DNA of 64,000 nucleotides from Halomonas korlensis (GTDB lineage: Bacteria > Pseudomonadota > Gammaproteobacteria > Pseudomonadales > Halomonadaceae), in assembly GCF_900116705.1 (NCBI RefSeq), contig NZ_FPBP01000001.1, positions 434,001 to 498,000 of the forward strand. The letters are read 5' to 3'. The translations under genes were made by a program, and so were the position numbers. Shown here one piece after another: positions 53,920 to 63,755 of this stretch; the first letter of the stretch is position 1, and each line of letters starts with the position of its first letter. The notes below the pieces were generated by a model. That model saw only the letters and a list, made by a program, of their open reading frames with translations, made no database searches and was not told the DNA's origin.

Positions 53920-54004
53920 GCGGATGTGGTGGAATTGGTAGACACGCCAGGTTTAGGTCCTGGTGCCTTCGGGCGTGGAGGTTCAAGTCCTCTCATCCGC
54001 ACCA
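53920..54004 (+). tRNA. tRNA-Leu, anticodon UAG, with encoded CCA
   Basis: The acceptor stem GCGGATG pairs with CATCCGC, followed by A and encoded CCA. The anticodon stem CCAGG/CCTGG frames loop TTTAGGT, giving anticodon UAG (reads CUA/CUN). The long variable arm and the GGTTCAAGTCC T arm confirm a class II leucine tRNA. Confidence 0.97.
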
Positions 54005-54136: not shown

Positions 54137-54881
54137 ATGACATCCCCCGTCTGGCATCCCTATACCCATCTCAAGACCCAGCGCCCGGCGCCCCAAGGTG
54201 GTCGGCGGAGAGGGGCCGCGCTTCACTCTGGAGGGCGGCGAGACGCTGCTCGACGCCACCTGTTCCTGGTGGTGCATGATCCATGGCTACGCCCACCCCC
54301 GGCTGGCGGCGGCGATCCGTGAACAGGCCAGCGAACTGTGCCATGTGATGCTCGGTGGCCTGACCCACGCGCCCGCCGACCATGCCGAGGTGACACCGAT
54401 ATCATGGTGCTGTCCAAGGGGCTCACTGGCGGGTATCTCGGCCACGCGGCGACCCTGGCCACCGACCGGGTGCACGAGGCCTTCATGGGAGACTCTCCCG
54501 ACCACGCCTTCATGCATGGCTCCACCTTAATGAGCAATCCGATGGCCTGCCGGGTGGCGCTGGATAGCCTTGCCGTCTTCGAGGAGGAGGATTATCTGGG
54601 CTAGATCGCCGATTTGAGCAAGGTATTGAACGAGGCGCTGATCGACGATGCAGCGCTGACCGCCCACCAGAGGTCGCAGACGTCCGCGTGCACGGCGCCA
54701 CCGCGGCGATCGAGGCCCGTGACGCGGCAGCGCTGGCGGGCGTCGGCGACTGGACCCGCGGGCAGGGCATCTGCTGCAACCCATCGGTCGCTGGCTCTAC
54801 ACCATGCCCGCCTATATCACCACCGAGCCCGACATGCGACGCATCACCGACGTCATGAAGGGCTGGTTCCTGGCGCACTGA
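54137..54881 (+). pseudogene. bioA: Degraded bioA (DAPA aminotransferase)
   Basis: The start reads MTSPVWHPYTHLKTQRPAP like BioA, then one extra C near 54191-54194 shifts the frame. The second frame continues as VVGGEGPRFTLEGG, TCSWWCMIHGYAHP and HVMLGGLTHAPADHAE. About 170 codons are then missing, and a third frame resumes at DTDIMVLSKGLTGG, which still has the PLP Lys, through FMHGSTLMSNPMACR. A TAG at 54602-54604 interrupts it, a further break follows, and the family C-terminus ends as MPAYITTEPDMRRI. With two frame breaks, a large deletion and a nonsense codon it cannot make an active enzyme. It lies just after tRNA-Leu. Confidence 0.93.
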
Positions 54882-54893
54882 TCGCGCCGGCGG

Positions 54894-56918
54894 CTATACC
54901 AGCCTGCGCGAAATGGTGCGATCCCAGCTACGGCAGTAGACCCGCCTTTCGCCCTCATAGGCATCCAGGGTGGCATGCAGCCGGAATTCTCTCGCATTCG
55001 AGGTCAGCACGGTGCGGGTCACCGTGCTGACCTCCCAGTCACCCCGCTTGAGCGAGCGGTCCCAGCGGGTCTCGCTCTCAAGGGAATCGAAATCATCGTC
55101 CCGGGAACGATAGGTCTCCACGGCCCGGGTCTGCACCTCGATGCCGCTGTCCTCGAGCCGAATGCGGCCGTTGTCATTGATTACCTCCAGGGTCGAGACG
55201 TCCTCTGCAAGGTCGCGGTGGACGTACCAGTTATGGTGTCCGGGCTCGAGGCGCGTCATATCGATGGTCGGGCCCGCTTCCGCTTCGGCGAACGGCGCCA
55301 GCCGGCTGTCCTCGTCACGGGGCGGTCTGACCGGCAGATGCAGGGCGCTGCCCTTGTCGAAGATAGTCAACCGCACGCGCTCGGGGGGGGGCCAGGCCAA
55401 AGGCCAGTAGGAGGTGGAAAGGGAGAGGCGCAGTCTGTGACCACGGGGAAATACCTGAGCCACGTCATTGAACGCCACCCTGGCACGATAGCGGCGGTCC
55501 GGCGCCAGGAGGCTGGGGGATTCGTGGCTCTCCCGATGGGTCAGGTTGAGCAGGCCATAGGTGACGCGAGTCGCCTTGTCGTCGGGCGCCACGTCGGAAA
55601 GTCTTACCGCCACCATGGCGACAGGGCGATCGACGGAGAACTCAAGCTCCAGTTCCGGCGCCCCCATCATCTCCAGGAAGTCCTCCAATGGCGGGCTGTC
55701 GAAGATCAGGGCTCCGCCGTCCTCCTCTCGCTGGTCGTGGGCAAGGTCGGGACCCGCGGCATAAGAACACCACTTGCCGGCGAATAGGCCACAGGTCAGT
55801 GGAGATTGCACGGTGAGGGCAGTTTCCACCTCGCAGGACTTGCCATCCATGGCCAGCCGACCACGTGCCAGCGGCAACTTGCAATGTACGATGTTGGGTG
55901 AGGGCCAGCACGGCTCGACTACCCAGCGGCCGGGGCGGTGACCGTAGCGGGTGGTCGGTGGCAGACTGTCCTGCATCCATACCTTCAGCGCCGACTCGTC
56001 TTTCACACCGGTATCCCTCCCCTTGAGCCACTGGTCCCACCAGCGCAGACACTCCTGCAGAAAGCCGATGGCCGGCCCGGGCTCTCCGAGATGGGGATAC
56101 TTGTGGCTCCAAGGACCAATCAGCCCCTGGCAAAGACCAGGCAGGTTCGCCACCAGCCGCTTGACGGCATTGGAGTAGCCGTCCGCCCAACCGCTGACGG
56201 CCAGCACAGGAACCTGCACCCGGGAGAAGTCCTCGCAGATCGAACCGTGCTGCCAATAGGTGTCCCGGTGAGGATGCTCGAGCCAGGTAGCCAGCCACAG
56301 GCCGCTGCCCTCGAGCCGTCGGTGCCACATTGCGCGCCAGGCGTCACCGACCACGCTGGGGTCCGGCGGCAGCGAGTTATAGGCGAACATGGTGGAAGCC
56401 CAGGAGAGGTTATCACCAAGCAGGCAACCGCCCATATAGTGCACATCGTCCGCGTAGCGGTCATCCGTGGAGCAGACACTAACCACAGCCCGCAGCTCAG
56501 AGGGGCGCCGGGCGGCCAGTTGCAGGCCATTGAAGCCGCCCCAGGAGATGCCGATCATACCGACCTTGCCGTCGCACCAAGGCTGGGCGGCTATCCAGCG
56601 CAGGATCGCCTCGCCGTCCACCAGCTCCTGTTCCAGGTACTCGTCAGTGAGCACACCACCGGAGTCACCGCTGCCGCGGAGGTCCACCCGCAGCGAGGCA
56701 TAGCCGTGCCCAGCAAAATAGTGGTGATGCATGGCATCACGCCGTGCCGAGCCGTCGCGCAGGCGGTAAGGGATATATTCGAGAATGGCCGGCACCGGGG
56801 CATCCGCGGCACCCTCCGGGAGCCAAAGGCGAGCGCAGAGCTCGACCCCGTCATCCATGGGGATCCAGACAGGATCCTGGCACTCGACCTCGTGAGGAAA
56901 ATCGGTCACGACGCGCAT
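54894..56918 (-). CDS. CocE/NonD-type hydrolase (S15-like alpha/beta hydrolase)
   Basis: This encodes 674 residues. An alpha/beta hydrolase domain has the nucleophile Ser125 in GISWGG, Asp246 in GWADGYSN and His272 in GPWSH, the triad layout of cocaine-esterase and X-Pro-dipeptidyl-peptidase enzymes. After about residue 380 a beta-rich jelly-roll domain follows, with FPRGHRLRLSLSTSYWPL, as in that family. No signal peptide is seen, so it is probably cytosolic. A strong ribosome site (AAGGAGG) precedes the ATG, 28 bp after the ATP-grasp gene, so the two form an operon. The substrate is likely an ester or an amide/peptide; not visible from sequence. It is convergent with the bioA pseudogene. 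Confidence 0.85.
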   Translation of the reverse strand: MRVVTDFPHEVECQDPVWIPMDDGVELCARLWLPEGAADAPVPAILEYIPYRLRDGSARRDAMHHHYFAGHGYASLRVDLRGSGDSGGVLTDEYLEQELVDGEAILRWIAAQPWCDGKVGMIGISWGGFNGLQLAARRPSELRAVVSVCSTDDRYADDVHYMGGCLLGDNLSWASTMFAYNSLPPDPSVVGDAWRAMWHRRLEGSGLWLATWLEHPHRDTYWQHGSICEDFSRVQVPVLAVSGWADGYSNAVKRLVANLPGLCQGLIGPWSHKYPHLGEPGPAIGFLQECLRWWDQWLKGRDTGVKDESALKVWMQDSLPPTTRYGHRPGRWVVEPCWPSPNIVHCKLPLARGRLAMDGKSCEVETALTVQSPLTCGLFAGKWCSYAAGPDLAHDQREEDGGALIFDSPPLEDFLEMMGAPELELEFSVDRPVAMVAVRLSDVAPDDKATRVTYGLLNLTHRESHESPSLLAPDRRYRARVAFNDVAQVFPRGHRLRLSLSTSYWPLAWPPPERVRLTIFDKGSALHLPVRPPRDEDSRLAPFAEAEAGPTIDMTRLEPGHHNWYVHRDLAEDVSTLEVINDNGRIRLEDSGIEVQTRAVETYRSRDDDFDSLESETRWDRSLKRGDWEVSTVTRTVLTSNAREFRLHATLDAYEGERRVYCRSWDRTISRRLV

Positions 56919-56946
56919 GACGGCCTCCTTCAGGTAAAACGATGGC

Positions 56947-58251
56947 TCAGCGAGACGCCTGCGAGGAAAGGGGTTCGATCTCGAAGGGCAGCATCCGTCG
57001 GCACTGCTCGATCCGATCCTTCAGCGCCTCGCGGGTCTCCGCGCCGGTAAACAGCACGCCAAGCTCCCAAGAGAAAGAATCCTGGTGGAATAGCGCCGAG
57101 AGTCGCATGCCCTCGCGCACGTTGAGATACACGAGGGTGCCCGGGAACGTTTGCTCGACCCGACGGATTTCCTCTTCAGACGGCACTCGACGCACCCACC
57201 CATCCTCGAAGACCCGCAGCATCTGCTTAGCGGCGAGGGGATAGCGGCCCTCGCGGTGCGGCATACGCGGTGGGATTCCCAGTGCCACGTCCACCATCAC
57301 TTGAAGGTGTGGCGCCCCATCGACCAACTGAAAAATCGCCGCATGGGAACGCGAGATGCGGGCGTTGATCTCGAGCAGCCAGATACGGTCGGTCTGCTCG
57401 TCCAGGTAGTACTCAATATTGAATGGCCCATCGTCGTAGTCGATCCGATCGAGGAAGCGTCGGGTGATCGCGAGTATGCGCTGCTGCACCTCATCGGACA
57501 GCGACGAGGGATACTCGTAGCGCAGCAACACAGAGGAGTGCGTAGCGTCGCGCAGGCTGTCGACGATGCCCACCACGTGGACCTCGCCACTCTGGACGTA
57601 ACCCTCCAGGGTGCACTGACGGCCGGATGAGATGATGCCCTCGGCTATGCAGTAATGTCCGGTGATCGCCGCCACCTCCTCGGGCAGCTCGGCGAGGGCG
57701 GTGATCTCATCAAAGGGTCGGCCGAAACGCCCGATCCCTTTGCGGATGACCGGCAACACCTCGCACAGCTGGTCGGCATTCTCGATCAGAAAGCCGAGGT
57801 GGGAGGAGTGGGCCTTTATCGGCTTGATCCAGAACGGGTAATCGATCACGATCGTCTCGACAGCTCGGTCGTCGAAGGGGTCCAACGCCTGGAAGGCCGG
57901 CACACACTCCGGCACGGCTCGTGCCTGCTCCAGGCGGCTCCAGTACTTATGCTCGCACTTGAGAAAGGCTTCCAGCGACGGGCCGGGCAATCCCCGCTCC
58001 CGGCGCAGCACCGGCAGCAGCCCACTGGTGGGGAAGTCCCAGTAACCGACAATGGCATCCACAGGGCCGGAGAATCGCTCGAGCTCTGCTAGAGCGTCCG
58101 CCGCCAAGTGGGCAAAGGGGTACTCCTCGGCATGCACCACCTCGTCGAACGACAATAGCTCGTGAAAGACATAGTCCTCGGCGTTCCGTAGTTTCGGTAG
58201 CAGCTCCCGAGCCAACTCATCCAACCCGATCACGAACACATTCCAGCTCAT
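56947..58251 (-). CDS. ATP-grasp ligase, first of two in the cluster
   Basis: This encodes 434 residues. ATP-grasp features are the nucleotide Lys in YPFWIKPIK (143/146), an acidic residue at Glu280 in GPFNIEYYL and the metal signature LLEINARISRSHA (Glu294, Asn296). ATP-grasp enzymes of this kind activate a carboxylate as acyl-phosphate and join it to an amine or thiol. The N-terminus has VGYWDFPTSGLL before the grasp core. It shares little visible sequence with the second ATP-grasp protein of the cluster, so it is not a duplicate. Its leader contains a 19-bp tandem duplication; the ATG used lies after the second ribosome site. An upstream reading would add MREKSADVGEKR. Confidence 0.85.
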   Translation of the reverse strand: MSWNVFVIGLDELARELLPKLRNAEDYVFHELLSFDEVVHAEEYPFAHLAADALAELERFSGPVDAIVGYWDFPTSGLLPVLRRERGLPGPSLEAFLKCEHKYWSRLEQARAVPECVPAFQALDPFDDRAVETIVIDYPFWIKPIKAHSSHLGFLIENADQLCEVLPVIRKGIGRFGRPFDEITALAELPEEVAAITGHYCIAEGIISSGRQCTLEGYVQSGEVHVVGIVDSLRDATHSSVLLRYEYPSSLSDEVQQRILAITRRFLDRIDYDDGPFNIEYYLDEQTDRIWLLEINARISRSHAAIFQLVDGAPHLQVMVDVALGIPPRMPHREGRYPLAAKQMLRVFEDGWVRRVPSEEEIRRVEQTFPGTLVYLNVREGMRLSALFHQDSFSWELGVLFTGAETREALKDRIEQCRRMLPFEIEPLSSQASR

Positions 58252-58289
58252 GCGCTTTTCTCCCACATCCGCGCTTTTCTCCCTCATCC
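58252..58289 (-). repeat. Tandem 19-bp duplication carrying the ribosome site of the ATP-grasp gene
   Basis: Bases 58252-58270 and 58271-58289 are the same 19-mer except for one base (A versus T at the 14th place). On the minus strand each copy holds GGGAGAAAAGCGC, so the Shine-Dalgarno sequence is doubled. The proximal copy is correctly spaced for the ATG at 58251. Confidence 0.85.
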
Positions 58290-58653
58290 CTAATACCGGC
58301 AATGAAGCGTCGTCCCGGCGCGATCCATGAAATAGACAATCATCTTTCAGTATGGCTGCTATCTGTCAGTCTGCCTCGACGCTCATCAATGGGCTCCAGA
58401 TGACACCCAAAGCCGCAGAGGCGTGAGGCGATAGTGATGAGGACGGCGAAGCCGGTAGACTGCCCAAAAAGGGGACAAGGGACACAGCGATGAAGGGATG
58501 GAGTATGCCGAACCCGCCCCGTTGTCGCCCCCTCGTTGCGCTTCACCTGGTACGCCGATCACAGCCCGCGCTGGGCGCTGACATTGCGCCTAGAGATGTA
58601 TTTCCTCCGCTATATAGACCGCGCCACTCTCAGTAGCGCGAAGGATGCCTCGC
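58290..58653. other. Intergenic remainder of the divergent cluster region
   Basis: This stretch lies between the two arms of the cluster, so both promoters should be here. I find no strong promoter pair. Its right end holds an MFS-like coding remnant listed separately and a GCGC-armed hairpin just before the winged-helix gene. Confidence 0.5.
58536..58643 (+). pseudogene. Possible remnant of an MFS transporter N-terminus
   Basis: One frame reads RWALTLRLEMYFLRYIDRA followed by TLSSA, which looks like the first helix and NYIDRATLSVA-type motif of MFS organic-anion permeases, then departs from the family. The reading is short and could be chance, but the YIDRATLS string is characteristic. Confidence 0.35.
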
Positions 58654-58956
58654 ATGACCCTGAGCAAGACGCAATCCAGTTTCTATCGCCGGCTTTATGT
58701 CGCCCATCTAGTAGATGCCGGCATCGCCAGCGTACCGGCCATCGTCAAGGCGACGGGCATGCCGCGGCGTACCGCTCAAGACACCCTCGGTGCGCTGGCC
58801 GAGCTGGATATCGTCTGCGCGTTCGAGAAGGCGAAGGGCGAACGCCACAACATCGGCGTTTACGTGATTCGTGACTGGGGACCGATCGACCCGAACTGGG
58901 TGGCGGTGCACGCCGATCGATTGCGAGAAGTCCTGGGCTATCCGCTCCGGCCGTGA
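58654..58956 (+). CDS. Small winged-helix DNA-binding protein
   Basis: This encodes 100 residues. A helix-turn-helix is visible at about 28-50 (SVPAIVKATGMPRRTAQDTL) followed by a wing-like segment (LDIVCAFEKAKGERHNIGVYVIRDWG). I use the ATG with AAGGA eight bases upstream; the ATG three codons earlier is within that site. As the first gene on the plus arm, it is a likely local regulator of the divergent cluster, but this is inference from position. Related proteins with the same RRTAQDT segment occur as single genes, so it may be unrelated. Confidence 0.7.
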   Translation: MTLSKTQSSFYRRLYVAHLVDAGIASVPAIVKATGMPRRTAQDTLGALAELDIVCAFEKAKGERHNIGVYVIRDWGPIDPNWVAVHADRLREVLGYPLRP

Positions 58957-59125: not shown

Positions 59126-61114
59126 ATGAGTTTCAATACGCACGGATCGCCCCAGCATGACGATGGCGCGTCAGGCGAGCGGGTAGAGCAGCTCGACGCT
59201 GCCATTGAGCGGCTTGCCGCCGCGAACGCCATTGCAGAAGTTTCTCCTGTCTTCGAGGTTATCGATGCGGCACGTCCCCTGATGTTCGATGCCAGGGGGT
59301 TGGAAGTCCTCTACACGCGCGTGCCGGCGCTCGAGGCCGCTGGGTTGTTCGGTGGTAGCGACTGGAACCATCCCCAGACACTGGTGCCCTCGCTTGCCGT
59401 ACGTACCGTGCGTCATGGCGACCCGGTCGCCACCCTGGTCGAGTGCCTGAGTCAGATTCGCCTGCTGGCTGTTGCCAAGGGCGACTATTCGCACCCGTCG
59501 GTCTCGGCGGAGCACGCTCACCACTTTCTCGCTCAGGTGCTGGCCATGAACCTCGATCTCGTGGTCGGCGACCTGCACGAGGGCGACCGCCTGCGGCCTG
59601 ACCGGCTCGGCTACGCCGTCCAGTATCTGTATCACTACCTGCTTGAGCACCTGGGCTACGAGAATTTTCTGGAGCATCTGGTGGCCGAGGTATGGCGGAT
59701 TCTCGAGCAGCGCCCGGTCCAGGTCGATGGCATCAAGCAGATGGTGACCCAGATCGCCGCTTGCCTGAACACGCCGGACACCCTAGTGGGAGAGGTCGGG
59801 GAGGACGCCCGCAACCTCGTCAATGCCGTCTTCGGCCCCACCGCTGGCTGCCGCGAAGATCCCGGCTTTGAGGTATACACCGAGCGGCTGGAGCGCATGG
59901 ACGACGCGGCTCTGCTGCAGGAGGCCATTGCCTTTGCCGGGGCCATGCACAGCACCGGCCTGGTCTCGCCCTACATGCCGGGATTTATCCGTTACCTGCG
60001 CAGCCGATGGAACGCACTGATCCCCACGGCACTCGGCCTGAGTTATACGGGGGCCGACGCTTTTCACTGTTACCCGGCGTTGATTCACACGCTGATTGAT
60101 GAAGCCCTGTTTGCCGAAACCAGCCAGGCCGTCTATGGCCTTGCCATGATGCTCGAGCGAGGCATCCTGTACTCGCCTCCGGTGGCTCCGTCGCTGTGGC
60201 GGCAGCTGAGGCTATCGTTGTGTGATGCCGCGGCGCAGAAGATCGTGGCTGTGTTCGGGAACCGCCGCTCGCCAGAATGCTTTCTGCTCGCCGATGTTCT
60301 CAATGTGCTTGGTCGCCCGCTGGGCGTGGGACAGGGAAATTACCCCACTTGTCAGTCGACACGCGCTTTGTCCATGTGGGCCTTCAATATGCCGGCTGAA
60401 CTGCTTCGGATCGTCGCCTGGGCGGCGCGAGACGACGAGATCGTGATGCGCTTTGAAGGCAACAGCATTTCTTCCCGCGAGCTCGGCGCCGGCCTGGCAG
60501 CCGAGCCACCCGTGGATGTCGACGCCGTCTCCCTGCTTACCGTCCCCCACCTCGATCGCATCTACTTCGAAATGGGACGCCGCAGTGCCGGGCGCGGAGA
60601 GGATCCGCACAAGTGGGTCAACGCCGAGTTCCATGGCGATCATGTGGGCCATGGCTTTCGCATCGCGGTCGATGTCTTTACCGGCGGCCTGAAGGACTTC
60701 GAGGGGTTTATCCGTGACTTCTACGCCGCTTATCACCCCTTCTACAACGGCAATATACCGGTGATCAATCCACAGCCAGCGGGGATTGCCGTGACCGATA
60801 GCGCCACGCGTTTTCTTGGCTGGCACGCGATCACGATCCAGCGTCTTGCACTCGATCCGAGCCAGGTCATGCGGGTGTACTTCTTCAACCCCAACAACGA
60901 CAGTGGTCAGGACTGGGGACAAGGGATTGTCACCTCGACCCAAGGCAATGGCGAACTCTACGGCGAGGCCTCGCTACCGGTTGCCCAGTTTGCATCGCGG
61001 CTCTACGTCTTTCACTACGACCCGCTCGAAAAGGGCGAACCGACCGACATTCCCTCCGATGAAGTAGATCGGGCCATGCGTCTAGCCCAGGAGAGTTGGG
61101 CATCGGGGCGATAG
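59126..61114 (+). CDS. Unrecognised 662-residue protein with papain-like Cys-His-Asn pattern
   Basis: I do not recognise the whole protein. The first 380 residues are mainly helical. The C-terminal part has the order of a papain-fold enzyme: Cys409 at the start of a helix in GNYPTCQSTRALSMWAF (compare the QGxCGSCWAF motif), His567 in FLGWHAITI and Asn588 in VYFFNPNNDSGQDWGQG (compare kNSWGxxWGxxG). Other conserved-looking pieces are HGDHVGHGFRIAVD and YNGNIPVINPQPAG. No signal peptide or membrane segment. It may be a cysteine peptidase, a transglutaminase-like acyltransferase or an amidase. I chose ATG 59126; in-frame ATGs at 59012, 59075 and 59096 are alternatives. It is the centre of the two-ATP-grasp cluster, 85 bp before the second ligase. 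Confidence 0.7.
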   Translation: MSFNTHGSPQHDDGASGERVEQLDAAIERLAAANAIAEVSPVFEVIDAARPLMFDARGLEVLYTRVPALEAAGLFGGSDWNHPQTLVPSLAVRTVRHGDPVATLVECLSQIRLLAVAKGDYSHPSVSAEHAHHFLAQVLAMNLDLVVGDLHEGDRLRPDRLGYAVQYLYHYLLEHLGYENFLEHLVAEVWRILEQRPVQVDGIKQMVTQIAACLNTPDTLVGEVGEDARNLVNAVFGPTAGCREDPGFEVYTERLERMDDAALLQEAIAFAGAMHSTGLVSPYMPGFIRYLRSRWNALIPTALGLSYTGADAFHCYPALIHTLIDEALFAETSQAVYGLAMMLERGILYSPPVAPSLWRQLRLSLCDAAAQKIVAVFGNRRSPECFLLADVLNVLGRPLGVGQGNYPTCQSTRALSMWAFNMPAELLRIVAWAARDDEIVMRFEGNSISSRELGAGLAAEPPVDVDAVSLLTVPHLDRIYFEMGRRSAGRGEDPHKWVNAEFHGDHVGHGFRIAVDVFTGGLKDFEGFIRDFYAAYHPFYNGNIPVINPQPAGIAVTDSATRFLGWHAITIQRLALDPSQVMRVYFFNPNNDSGQDWGQGIVTSTQGNGELYGEASLPVAQFASRLYVFHYDPLEKGEPTDIPSDEVDRAMRLAQESWASGR

Positions 61115-61199: not shown

Positions 61200-62507
61200 A
61201 TGTCGACTGTAGCAGAAACCACGACCCCCAGGGATATCTCAAGCTGGACCGACCCGACACTGGATTCGGTCCGCGGTACCGAGACGCCCAAGGATCCGAA
61301 CAAGGGCTACATCGCACTGCTGGGCTGGAGCGTGAATGCCATCAAGGCCGCGCAGAAGTTTGACCGCCGCTACGTGGTGGTGGCGCCCGATTGGGCTGCC
61401 GATTTCTGCGAAGCCAACAAGATACCGTACATTCCTTGGGACTTTGTGCGCCTGAATGATCGATCCATGGAAATTGCGGAACATCTCAAGGCGGAAGGCG
61501 TTGATGTGGCCATCCCACTCTTCGAGGAAACCGTTGAATGGTCAGGCGCGATCAACTCTGTGCTCATGGACAACCCCCGCATGTACGGGCAGTCCATCCT
61601 GTTTCGGGATAAGGCACTGATGAAACGCCGCGCCCAGCTGGGCGGTATTCGTGTAGGGATCTTCGAGGAAGCACACGAGAAAGAAGACATTATCCGCTTC
61701 ATGAAACGTGTCAACCAGACGCTCCTCAAACTCGACGGCGACCCCGATGACCCGATTCACGTCAAAGCCTTCGACAAGGCCGGTTGTCTTGGTCACCGCA
61801 TGATCCGCAAGATCGATGAGATCGACAGCATACCGGCCGAAGAATATCCGTTGCTGATGGAAAGTCACCTTGATGGCTGGGAGTTTGCCGTCGAGGCATG
61901 GATTCATGATGGTGAGATCAAGTTCCTCAACATCTCCGAGTACGTGACCCTAGGCTATTCGGTGTTCGTTCCCGCCACTAGGGAACTCGAGAGCTGGCGC
62001 GATGCCATCACCAAGCAGATTAAGAAACTGATCAAGACGTTCGATATCCAGTTCGGACTGATCCATCCCGAATACTTCGTGGCGGCAGATGGCGAGATGT
62101 ACTTCGGCGAGGTCGCCTATCGCCCGCCCGGTTTCAAGGCCTTCGAGCTCATCGAGCGCGCCTACGGGTTCAGTGCCTATCAGGCATCGATGCTGGTCTT
62201 CGATCCCAAGAGCACCAAGGAGGAGGTCGAAGCCTTCTTCCCCCGCGAAGTGGTCGACGCGAAAGGCTATGCCGGGTGTTTTGGCGTGTATCCACGGCGT
62301 CGTGTCGTCAGCAAGCTGGAGATGCCCAAGGAAACCATCGAGCACCCGTACTTCGAATCTCACGAGCTGGTGGCGCCGGCTGAAGAGACAGTGCCGGACC
62401 GCTCGGCCTTCGGCACGCACTGGGGCCTCGTGTTCTTCTTCGGTGACGATCCAATCAAGATGCGGGATCTGCTCAAGGCGCAAGAGGAACTGGACTTCTA
62501 CGTCTAG
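61200..62507 (+). CDS. ATP-grasp ligase, second of two in the cluster
   Basis: This encodes 435 residues. ATP-grasp markers are the nucleotide Lys189 in HVKAFDKAG, the loop with MESHLDGWEFAVEAWI (Glu for the adenine pocket), and the metal-binding Glu304 in YFGEVAYRPPGF with Arg308. The N-terminal 100 residues form a Rossmann-like preATP-grasp domain (KGYIALLGWSVNAIKAAQKF). The C-terminal 90 residues (from about 345) are an extension with FGVYPRRRVV and THWGLVFFFG. It has a very good ribosome site. Glu, Lys and Asp are frequent relative to neighbours. Likely reaction: carboxylate-amine ligation; substrates unknown. Confidence 0.85.
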   Translation: MSTVAETTTPRDISSWTDPTLDSVRGTETPKDPNKGYIALLGWSVNAIKAAQKFDRRYVVVAPDWAADFCEANKIPYIPWDFVRLNDRSMEIAEHLKAEGVDVAIPLFEETVEWSGAINSVLMDNPRMYGQSILFRDKALMKRRAQLGGIRVGIFEEAHEKEDIIRFMKRVNQTLLKLDGDPDDPIHVKAFDKAGCLGHRMIRKIDEIDSIPAEEYPLLMESHLDGWEFAVEAWIHDGEIKFLNISEYVTLGYSVFVPATRELESWRDAITKQIKKLIKTFDIQFGLIHPEYFVAADGEMYFGEVAYRPPGFKAFELIERAYGFSAYQASMLVFDPKSTKEEVEAFFPREVVDAKGYAGCFGVYPRRRVVSKLEMPKETIEHPYFESHELVAPAEETVPDRSAFGTHWGLVFFFGDDPIKMRDLLKAQEELDFYV

Positions 62508-62594: not shown

Positions 62595-63755
62595 CTATTC
62601 ACCGCGCCGATCGAGGATACGATATGCGTGCGGTAACTCATCGCGCCTGTCCGCCGGGCTGAAGCGACCCGCCAGCCGATCGCCCGCGGCCATGGCGCTG
62701 GCCATGGTCCTGGCTTCGAACGTCTCGATAAGTGCCTGGTGCGCACGGTCGATCTCGTCAAGCAAGTGAGCCTGCATGGCCGGTCGATGACGCGCCTCCT
62801 GTAGCTTGAGGAGCGCATATTCACTGCCGGCGAAACCGGCCAGTGTCACAGCAGTCGTGGCCGCCCCTGCCAGCAACGCTCCTGGGCCGCTCGGCGCAGT
62901 GGCAGCCGCCACCACGCCACCCGACGTCAGCGAGCGAGCGGTGCTCACTCCCAGGCGCGCCAGCAGGCCGCGCATCGCCATGCGACCGCCCTGCATCACA
63001 ACGGCAGCGCCGAGACGCCGGGCGAGGGCTCGCCCCGTCAACATGCCAAGGCTGGCACCCCCTGCCGTGGCCGCGCGCCAGCGCGTCATGTCCATTTCTT
63101 CGCTCAGCGATCGATTCAGCACCTCGTCGAGGTCGAGCACGTACACTGCTGTGGCCGGCCGAGCGTCTTCCTGCATGCTGACCTGACGAGGCGCATAGCG
63201 CTCGTAAAGCTGTTGTGTCAGTTGATCTACCAGACGCTGCTGCATGCCGGCCAGCTGCTTCGGATAAGCCCGCTGCAGCTCGGCCAGGGCTTGCTCGATG
63301 CCGCTCGGCGTGACCAGTCGCTCGTGAAGCTGGGCCTCAAGCCATGGCTCGACATCATCGACCAGCGTCATGCCCAGGCGCGCATAGCTACCCGATAGCG
63401 AAAAATACCAGTCCAGATAACCCGGCACCGCCGCCTCGAGAGGCGCGAAGGTTATCGCCAGACGCATTCTGATCCAGGGTCGCATACGCGCCATCAGCCG
63501 CGCCTCGATATCTTCTGTCACCTCCTGCATGTCGCGGTCCAGCGCGGCGTGCGTCTTGGCGTCCAGGGTCAACGGCTGTCCATTGACGATCACGCGGTAG
63601 AGCGGGTCATCGGTGCGCTGCTCCAGCAAGCGCTGACCCATGCCAAGCAACAGCATCAGCCCCAGGACTACCAGCAACGATAGCCCCCAGCGGCCCCAAG
63701 CGCGTGGCAGATCTTGGCCTGCGGTCCTCGAGGAGGAAATATCGCCACGGCTCAT
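62595..63755 (-). CDS. Membrane protein of unknown function
   Basis: This encodes 386 residues. One helix near the N-terminus (about 22-42, GLSLLVVLGLMLLLGM) is followed by a long helical, probably periplasmic, region rich in Arg, Gln and Glu, and a second hydrophobic Gly/Ala-rich region around residues 230-315 (TAGGASLGMLTGRALARRLGAAVVMQGG). No enzyme motif. Its start overlaps the next gene's stop as ATGA, so the two are coupled. Confidence 0.7.
   Translation of the reverse strand: MSRGDISSSRTAGQDLPRAWGRWGLSLLVVLGLMLLLGMGQRLLEQRTDDPLYRVIVNGQPLTLDAKTHAALDRDMQEVTEDIEARLMARMRPWIRMRLAITFAPLEAAVPGYLDWYFSLSGSYARLGMTLVDDVEPWLEAQLHERLVTPSGIEQALAELQRAYPKQLAGMQQRLVDQLTQQLYERYAPRQVSMQEDARPATAVYVLDLDEVLNRSLSEEMDMTRWRAATAGGASLGMLTGRALARRLGAAVVMQGGRMAMRGLLARLGVSTARSLTSGGVVAAATAPSGPGALLAGAATTAVTLAGFAGSEYALLKLQEARHRPAMQAHLLDEIDRAHQALIETFEARTMASAMAAGDRLAGRFSPADRRDELPHAYRILDRRGE

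What the first reader, a model, noticed from the sequence alone, without database searches (positions are those of the whole stretch)
59126..61114. 662-residue protein with hidden Cys-His-Asn papain-like domain
Cys409, His567 and Asn588 sit in sequence settings that match the papain fold in order and context, including a WG-x-G after the Asn. The N-terminal 380 residues match nothing I recognise. An enzyme of this size between two ATP-grasp genes may take the ligase product as substrate.
Basis: inference. Interest (0 to 1): 0.75.

Follow-up and report, generated by a model that had tools for sequence, protein, structure and literature searches.

The report
Papain-like enzyme paired with ligase
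A large, unnamed bacterial protein carries a papain-type cysteine-enzyme domain on a long helical arm and, in the genomes sampled, occurs only together with one particular bond-forming ligase, so the two probably make and break (or pass on) the same unknown amide bond.

Summary
Window 59126-61114 (+) encodes a 662-residue protein without a Pfam, NCBIfam, PADLOC or PDB sequence match. AlphaFold models are confident (full length pLDDT 86.5; residues 366-662 alone 90.2). The catalytic domain's best structural neighbours are papain-fold cysteine proteases, calpain cores first (Z 9.3, 206 residues, 4.4 A; Foldseek agrees but never reaches E 0.001). Cys409 starts a helix, His567 lies in a strand, Asn588 follows the next strand; with Gln403 they are invariant in 105 of 105 distinct homologues, and Cys409 is the only conserved cysteine. 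The N-terminal ~380 residues are helical.

The neighbourhood claim needs correcting. Only the downstream ATP-grasp gene (61200-62507) is a general partner: next to 64 of 122 distinct homologues, in four arrangements, and present in the same sampled genomes (60 of 101 in the family; 11 of 398 in the phylum, one 20-bit row set aside), also where the two genes are far apart. The upstream ATP-grasp is a local neighbour of one subtype.

Best reading: a cytosolic pair in which an L-amino-acid-ligase-like enzyme forms an amide bond and the papain-fold enzyme cleaves it or transfers the acyl group. The substrate is unknown. New family of a known fold; two-gene system not described in the papers seen.

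The parts
59126..61114 (+). 662-aa papain-fold protein (called PAP here): N-terminal helical region plus C-terminal cysteine-enzyme domain
   Evidence: open frame; AlphaFold model pLDDT 86.5, pTM 0.83; conserved family
59126..60265 (+). residues 1-380: helical, solenoid-like N-terminal region, no sequence family
   Evidence: secondary structure; no family; only weak helical rows; less conserved than the rest (median identity to the window copy 55% for 20-380 against 68% for 381-640)
60221..61114 (+). residues 366-662: papain-fold catalytic domain
   Evidence: model pLDDT 90.2, pTM 0.88; structural neighbours papain fold, calpain core Z 9.3; Foldseek best calpain-3, probability 0.99, E 1.4e-3
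60332..60334 (+). codon of Gln403, candidate oxyanion-hole Gln (Q-x5-C)
   Evidence: invariant in 105 of 105; role by analogy to papain/calpain (recalled)
60350..60352 (+). codon of Cys409, candidate nucleophile, first residue of helix 409-421
   Evidence: only conserved Cys of 7; helix start
60824..60826 (+). codon of His567, candidate catalytic His in strand 563-576
   Evidence: invariant; strand; aligned with the His of Halomonas C1 peptidases (very weak)
60887..60889 (+). codon of Asn588, candidate third catalytic residue directly after strand 582-587
   Evidence: invariant; position. N590 (105 of 105) and N591 (103 of 105) are alternatives
61200..62507 (+). 435-aa ATP-grasp ligase, conserved partner of PAP
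   Evidence: ATP-grasp_4 E 1.4e-5, slightly under the curated cut-off; nearest solved structures include L-amino acid ligases 4wd3 and 3vot; E221, E228, E291, E304 and R308 invariant in 73 of 73; co-occurrence

Best explanation
This is a cytosolic two-enzyme amide-bond system. Supported by results: PAP has a papain-fold domain with an invariant Gln/Cys/His/Asn set; the partner ATP-grasp enzyme keeps invariant active-site-type residues; in the genomes sampled the two families occur together and are often adjacent. Inferred: the ATP-grasp enzyme activates a carboxylate as acyl-phosphate and joins it to an amine (an amino acid, peptide or other amine), as its L-amino-acid-ligase relatives do; PAP's Cys409, activated by His567 and oriented by Asn588, attacks that amide to form an acyl-enzyme, which water (cleavage) or a second amine (transfer) resolves; the N-terminal helical region selects the conjugate or acceptor. 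Paralogous PAPs in one genome (three here) would serve different acceptors or conjugates of the same kind of ligase. I favour cleavage, i.e. a dedicated amidase that reverses or trims the ligase product, by analogy with the ATP-grasp/protease pairs RimK-RimB and RloC-RloA.
For: Papain fold. Invariant residues in 105 of 105 homologues and the sole conserved Cys. Partner: identical genome sets, 60 of 101 in the family (at E <= 1e-60; set equality) and 11 of 398 in the phylum (at E <= 1e-40; one 20.8-bit row set aside); in the class sample all 6 of 258 genomes with the ligase also carry PAP. Genera g2, g421, g224 and g424 are mixed, and the genes agree in every genome listed for them. In G706, G728 and G744 the only PAP and the only ligase match lie on different contigs or over a million bases apart, and still both are present. 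Adjacent in 64 of 122 distinct PAPs: ligase upstream same strand 33, downstream same strand 24, upstream opposite 6, downstream opposite 1; gaps by my gene calls mostly 20-60 bp or about 85 bp. Ligase class. No membrane-like segment (highest 19-residue Kyte-Doolittle mean 1.2). Analogy RimK-RimB/RloC-RloA: passages of PMC12239564.
Against: No substrate or activity evidence. 58 of 122 distinct PAPs have no adjacent ligase (6 of them have it elsewhere in the same locus, and 5 sit within 1.5 kb of a locus end), and the solitary subtype of this same genome is among them. Co-occurrence can partly reflect loss of an adjacent pair as one unit. Some ligase copies have no adjacent PAP either. Foldseek gave no hit at E <= 0.001 and no sequence profile reaches a known peptidase. 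Hydrolysis and transfer cannot be told apart from sequence. Side-chain distances were not measured, and a weak profile alignment favours N591 over N588.
Confidence: 0.45

Rival explanations
1. Biosynthetic partner: PAP is an acyl- or peptidyl-transferase that takes the ligase's product (or an acyl donor) and passes it to a second acceptor, building a small conjugate (compatible solute, siderophore-like or amine conjugate), as phytochelatin synthase or BtrH do with a papain fold.
For: Phytochelatin synthase Alr0975 is among the structural neighbours (Z 7.3). PMC10318531 section 8 places BtrH and phytochelatin synthase in the same cluster of the fold as papain and calpain. Paralogues sit in different metabolic contexts: behind a putrescine-transporter-like gene set in Marinobacter (7 loci; PotF-like 410 bits and PotI-like 434 bits, both below NCBIfam's cut-offs), near a histone-deacetylase/acetylpolyamine-amidohydrolase-fold gene in several lineages.
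Against: These contexts are lineage-specific and cover few loci (HDAC-fold gene in 9 loci, at least two of them apparently one genome). Z rank favours proteases, though rows differing by under 1 are tied.
Confidence: 0.27
2. PAP is an ordinary intracellular protease (calpain-like) with a helical targeting domain, acting on proteins unrelated to the ligase; the pair is held together for another reason such as shared regulation.
For: Calpain protease cores are the top structural neighbours; a helical solenoid suits protein binding; 58 of 122 PAPs have no adjacent ligase.
Against: Genome-level co-occurrence with one ligase clade, also where unlinked, and adjacency in four arrangements.
Confidence: 0.17
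3. The papain-like fold serves as a binding or regulatory subunit of the ligase and is not itself catalytic.
For: Inactive papain-fold proteins exist (PMC10318531 names some, passages).
Against: Gln, Cys, His and Asn are all invariant in 105 of 105, which is not expected of an inactive relative (recalled).
Confidence: 0.06

Closest known systems
Calpain protease core (MEROPS C2) and papain-type peptidases (C1), clan CA
   Same: fold of residues 371-632; order Gln-Cys-His-Asn; Cys at a helix start; Cys-His spacing of 158 residues resembles calpain's (calpain numbering recalled)
   Different: no Pfam PF00648/PF00112 match; 8-15% identity in the structure alignments to calpains; long N-terminal helical region; paired with an ATP-grasp ligase
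RimK-RimB and RloC-RloA (ATP-grasp protein with a dedicated protease)
   Same: logic: a cytosolic ATP-grasp protein linked to a peptidase; several redundant peptidases (RloA, A2, A3) beside one RloC (passages of PMC12239564)
   Different: their peptidases are retropepsin-like aspartic enzymes, the Rlo ones with signal peptides; the partner here is papain-fold, without any evident export signal; no RimK structure is among the ligase's hits
Glutathionylspermidine synthetase/amidase
   Same: an ATP-grasp synthetase plus a papain-fold cysteine amidase acting on its product (recalled)
   Different: fused in one chain with a CHAP-type amidase in Gsp (recalled); separate genes here and no CHAP match; substrate unknown
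BtrJ/BtrH of butirosin synthesis; phytochelatin synthase
   Same: papain-fold transferases connected with amide ligases (BtrH and PCS: section 8 of PMC10318531; BtrJ recalled)
   Different: no Pfam match to either family
L-amino acid ligases 4wd3 and 3vot (BL00235)
   Same: nearest solved relatives of the partner ATP-grasp, with 4dim, named phosphoribosylglycinamide synthetase
   Different: weak similarity (single sequence E 1e-4 and 0.033; profile about 1e-3); substrate not transferable

Membership tests
Papain fold / peptidase clan CA | papain-like alpha/beta fold | tested here: met
   models; rows 1-24 and 49 of 50 rows (by title or recalled family) are papain-fold; best Z 9.3. Foldseek E never <= 0.001
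Papain fold / peptidase clan CA | catalytic order Cys, His, Asn/Asp with Gln before the Cys, conserved in the family | tested here: met
   Q403, C409, H567, N588 in 105 of 105
Papain fold / peptidase clan CA | three residues close in space | not testable with these tools
   no coordinates returned; position at helix start, in a strand and at a strand end fits
Papain fold / peptidase clan CA | catalytic activity | not testable with these tools
   needs an assay
Calpain family C2 (PF00648) | match to the family sequence model | tested here: not met
   no PF00648 match at E <= 1 for P0001 nor in 34 members at E <= 0.1
Calpain family C2 (PF00648) | protease-core structure | tested here: met
   18 calpain entries at Z 8.2-9.3 over 200-220 residues; three further calpain entries at 6.2-6.8
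Papain family C1 (PF00112) | match to the family sequence model | tested here: not met
   hhalign with three Halomonas C1 peptidases only 1.5% probability
Transglutaminase-like family | Cys-His-Asp triad and family sequence model | tested here: not met
   Asn, not Asp, at the assigned third position (D592 is also invariant) and no Pfam match
Glutathionylspermidine synthetase/amidase | CHAP-type amidase fused to an ATP-grasp synthetase | tested here: not met
   separate genes, no CHAP match
ATP-grasp ligases (partner gene) | ATP-grasp domain with conserved acidic residues and Arg | tested here: met
   PF13535 E 1.4e-5, just under the curated cut-off (25.2 against 27 bits); E221, E228, E291, E304, R308 in 73 of 73 (roles recalled)
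L-amino acid ligase (partner gene) | ligates two L-amino acids | not testable with these tools
   only similarity to 4wd3 and 3vot

The most novel reading that the evidence does not exclude
A previously undescribed bacterial write-and-erase (or write-and-transfer) amide-tagging system: one ATP-grasp ligase attaches an amino acid or small carboxylate to proteins, peptides or polyamines, and a family of papain-fold enzymes, each with its own helical recognition arm, removes or relocates the tag on different targets, comparable in logic to tubulin tyrosine ligase and vasohibin (recalled) but of independent origin, and confined, as far as seen here, to marine and halophilic proteobacteria.
Probability: 0.15. 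Interest if true: 0.85.

Novelty: new variant of a known kind. Interest (0 to 1): 0.6.

Why it matters
Neither 24,736 Pfam nor 18,950 NCBIfam models name this protein, yet it sits in 60 of 101 sampled genomes of its family and up to three times per genome. The pairing with one ligase clade makes a defined, testable two-gene chemistry: find the amide the ligase makes and see what the papain-like enzyme does to it. It would add a new papain-fold family, possibly a new amine-conjugate or tagging pathway, in bacteria many of which live at high salt.

Tried and rejected
Rejected as general parts: the upstream ATP-grasp (56947-58302, -) and the CocE/NonD-type hydrolase (54894-56918, -): 9 and 10 loci, against 128 loci with PAP. 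Against a clean rejection: within the window's Halomonas subtype they are in 8 and 9 of the 17 loci listed, and in L178 the pair lies near the partner ligase without PAP, so a lineage-specific role stays open. A precursor peptide substrate: among 890 candidate small ORFs, none of the 12 largest groups printed spans the subtypes. A known defence system: no PADLOC match at E <= 0.01 for PAP or the ligase. Mobile or viral origin: no phage record, none of 82 pattern matches in viral contigs was a relative, one plasmid record, the 1.8-Mb replicon of Halomonas sp. PA16-9. A biotin link: the neighbouring bio genes look like local synteny (not tested further).

Led nowhere: sequence profiles against solved structures (11 weak rows, best E 0.022, designed helical proteins first; nothing). 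hhalign with three Halomonas C1 peptidases: its single hit (probability 1.5%) pairs His567's motif with the catalytic His but pairs the catalytic Asn with N591, not N588, so N588 rests on its position after the strand and on the N-P motif shared with calpain (recalled). The N-terminal region was not folded alone, so 'no known fold' is not claimed. Families absent from the VIA lists are not excluded by that absence.

Dropped rows and limits: G540 (20.8 bits, residues 268-430, four stops) was treated as chance, which leaves 11 of 398; the profile search also gave 11. One search kept 80 of 519 confirmed loci. One search drew 258 genomes where one search drew 274; G260 and G269, which carry PAP, did not appear there, but their loci show the ligase gene. 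Whole genomes were searched only inside the window's own phylum. Gene calls are from my own simple script, not a trained gene finder; counts of loci contain duplicate stretches and genomes, whereas one search is de-duplicated by the last 250 residues of PAP and, like, leaves out the short loci L001-L003, L084-L108 and L121-L142. Names of genera come from record titles; that they are marine or halophilic is recalled.

Literature: Iyer et al. 2009 (PMC3268129, amidoligases), which might mention this pair, was not held and not read. Searches listed no paper whose title or abstract start describes this protein family or this pair (46 listed 15 of 16, 88 listed 8 of 12); beyond listings I saw passages of PMC10318531, PMC2922099 and PMC12239564 and section 8 of PMC10318531. 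PMC2922099 mentions a novel papain-like family in peptide-synthesis operons; its sequences were not compared with this one.

Full report
WHAT IS THERE. The frame 59126-61114 (+) is open for 662 codons. It matches no Pfam or NCBIfam family (best Pfam row E 0.12), no PADLOC model and no PDB sequence; a profile of 34 homologues finds only 11 weak rows, led by designed helical proteins, and scanning all 34 members against Pfam gives only single-member rows at E 0.018 or worse. The window's own genome has three copies: the window copy, one at 59% identity and one at 55%. Relatives are common: 519 confirmed stretches in the species-level genome collection, of which 80 were kept, from Halomonas, Vreelandella, Marinobacter, Halovibrio, Porticoccus, Saccharospirillum, Salinisphaera, Nitrococcus, Ectothiorhodospiraceae and others by record title.

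THE FOLD. AlphaFold on 34 aligned sequences gives pLDDT 86.5 and pTM 0.83. Residues 13 to about 396 are helical; then comes a mixed domain in which Cys409 is the first residue of helix 409-421, His567 lies in strand 563-576 and Asn588 follows strand 582-587. This is the papain arrangement (recalled). The loop 401-407 just before the Cys has low confidence in that model (pLDDT under 50). VIA-align on the whole model: rows 1-24 are all papain-fold cysteine enzymes, most covering roughly 371-632, Z up to 7.9; five of the 50 rows are other proteins matching the N-terminal helical part. Because Z under 8 can be a common arrangement, I folded residues 366-662 alone with 70 sequences (pLDDT 90.2, pTM 0.88). 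Then 18 calpain entries fill ranks 1-18 with Z 8.2-9.3 (best 206 residues, 4.4 A, 12% identity), followed by the C39 domain of PCAT1 (8.1), staphopains (7.2-7.4) and phytochelatin synthase Alr0975 (7.3); three more calpain entries score 6.2-6.8. Of 50 rows, 49 are papain-fold by title or known family (recalled for several) and one (8ssk, a CdiA-CT toxin) does not state its fold. Foldseek agrees (calpain-3, probability 0.99), but its best E is 1.4e-3, above the 0.001 line. The full-length Foldseek searches also had no E <= 0.001. I conclude that the papain fold is well supported and that the protein is not a calpain by sequence.

THE RESIDUES. In 105 distinct homologues (identity to the window copy from 40%, median 58%) Gln403, Cys409, His567 and Asn588 never vary. 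Cys409 is the only one of seven cysteines that is conserved. Other conserved residues could compete for the later roles (His123, 475, 495, 537, 630; Asn590, Asn591; Asp592), so His567 and Asn588 are assigned by position. A very weak profile alignment to three Halomonas C1 peptidases pairs the LGWHAITI motif with their catalytic-His motif but puts the catalytic Asn opposite Asn591; I report this against a firm N588 assignment. Invariant positions are denser in the catalytic part (22% of positions 381-662) than in the helical part (8% of 20-380).

THE PARTNER. Of all neighbours, only one gene family is widely conserved: the 435-aa ATP-grasp at 61200-62507 (62 loci, against 120 loci with the papain-like cluster; 74 against 128 after more loci were fetched, some of them centred on the ligase; the next largest neighbour cluster has 16 loci). 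After removing identical proteins, 64 of 122 papain-like genes have it next door: upstream on the same strand 33, downstream on the same strand 24, upstream on the opposite strand 6, downstream on the opposite strand 1; 58 do not. The arrangement broadly follows the gene tree: the window's subtype in Halomonas has the ligase downstream, a second subtype has it upstream, a Marinobacter subtype has it divergent, and a third subtype mostly stands alone, as do Marinobacter members of the window's subtype. At genome level the match is exact. In 101 genomes of the family both proteins occur in the same 60 (equality checked). In 398 genomes of the phylum both occur in the same 11, once the 20.8-bit G540 row is set aside. 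In a class sample of 258, all 6 genomes with the ligase carry the papain-like gene. Among listed genomes, genera g2, g421, g224 and g424 contain both carriers and non-carriers, and the two genes agree in each. Adjacent genes can be lost together, so the counts are not independent events. Two facts argue that the coupling is functional: the pair is adjacent in four arrangements, and in G706, G728 and G744 the single PAP and the single ligase match lie on different contigs or more than a million bases apart.

WHAT THE PARTNER IS. It hits ATP-grasp_4 slightly under the curated cut-off. Its nearest solved structures are 4dim and the L-amino acid ligases 4wd3 and 3vot (single sequence E 1e-4 to 0.033; profile E 1.7e-4 to 1e-3). 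Residues that fit the ATP-grasp metal and phosphate site (E221, E228, E291, E304, R308; roles recalled) are invariant in 73 of 73. It is better conserved (median identity to the window copy 88%) than the papain-like protein (58%).

HINTS OF SUBSTRATE. Solitary copies in Marinobacter (7 loci) follow a putrescine-transporter-like gene set, in some with one opposite-strand gene between: a PotF-like binding protein and a PotI-like permease, both below NCBIfam's cut-offs, with an ABC ATPase-cluster gene and a second permease between them. A histone-deacetylase-fold gene, related to HDAC6, less closely to the polyamine deacetylase HDAC10 and acetylpolyamine amidohydrolases, is the next gene on the same strand in two divergent lineages (L117, L118), overlaps the gene end on the opposite strand in a third (L183) and lies within 0.5-1.7 kb in five more loci, two of which (L048, L166) look like one genome. 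Other solitary copies sit near a glycine-betaine-type transporter, FAD oxidoreductases or unrelated genes. Amines are a lead, not a finding.

HOW IT PROBABLY WORKS. Ligase: carboxylate + ATP -> acyl-phosphate -> amide. Papain-like enzyme: thiolate attack on that amide, acyl-enzyme, then water or another amine. All of this is inference. I favour cleavage at 0.45, transfer at 0.27. [quoted passage not shown] That system uses aspartic peptidases and is not homologous in its peptidase part.

NOVELTY. Papain fold and ATP-grasp are known; the family and the pair are unnamed in the libraries searched, and no paper describing them was seen in nine literature searches (listings, two of them capped). 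One likely relevant paper (PMC3268129) was not available. I therefore call it a new variant of a known kind.

Noticed in passing
window 54137-54875: bioA beside bioB is degraded: five pieces at 60-79% identity to a relative's full-length class-III aminotransferase, one with an internal stop, residues 115-292 of the relative unmatched, just behind a tRNA-Leu gene at 53920-54004. Related loci hold a full-length class-III aminotransferase in the same region; the names bioA and bioB are recalled.
   Followed up: partly
window 54894-58302 (-): A CocE/NonD-type hydrolase (S15 family) and a second ATP-grasp form a pair found in 9-10 loci, nearly all of the window's subtype, and once (L178) near a ligase copy without the papain-like gene: possibly a separate small peptide or amide cluster.
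   Followed up: partly
window 58645-58956 (+): A winged-helix protein of family HTH_43 (PF09904) directly upstream of the papain-like gene; its cluster is found in 5 loci, one being the window's own stretch again; possible local regulator.
   Followed up: no
L175-L180: Ligase copies 88-90% identical to the window's lie without an adjacent papain-like gene; in G314, G573, G697 and G736 as a second ligase copy, in G706 and G744 as the only one.
   Followed up: partly
L118:342-5437: In a divergent lineage the order is papain-like gene, HDAC-fold gene, ATP-grasp gene with overlapping ends by my gene calls: a possible three-gene operon.
   Followed up: partly
window 62595-63755 (-): 386-aa protein without Pfam or NCBIfam assignment, in a cluster of 4 loci.
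   Followed up: no
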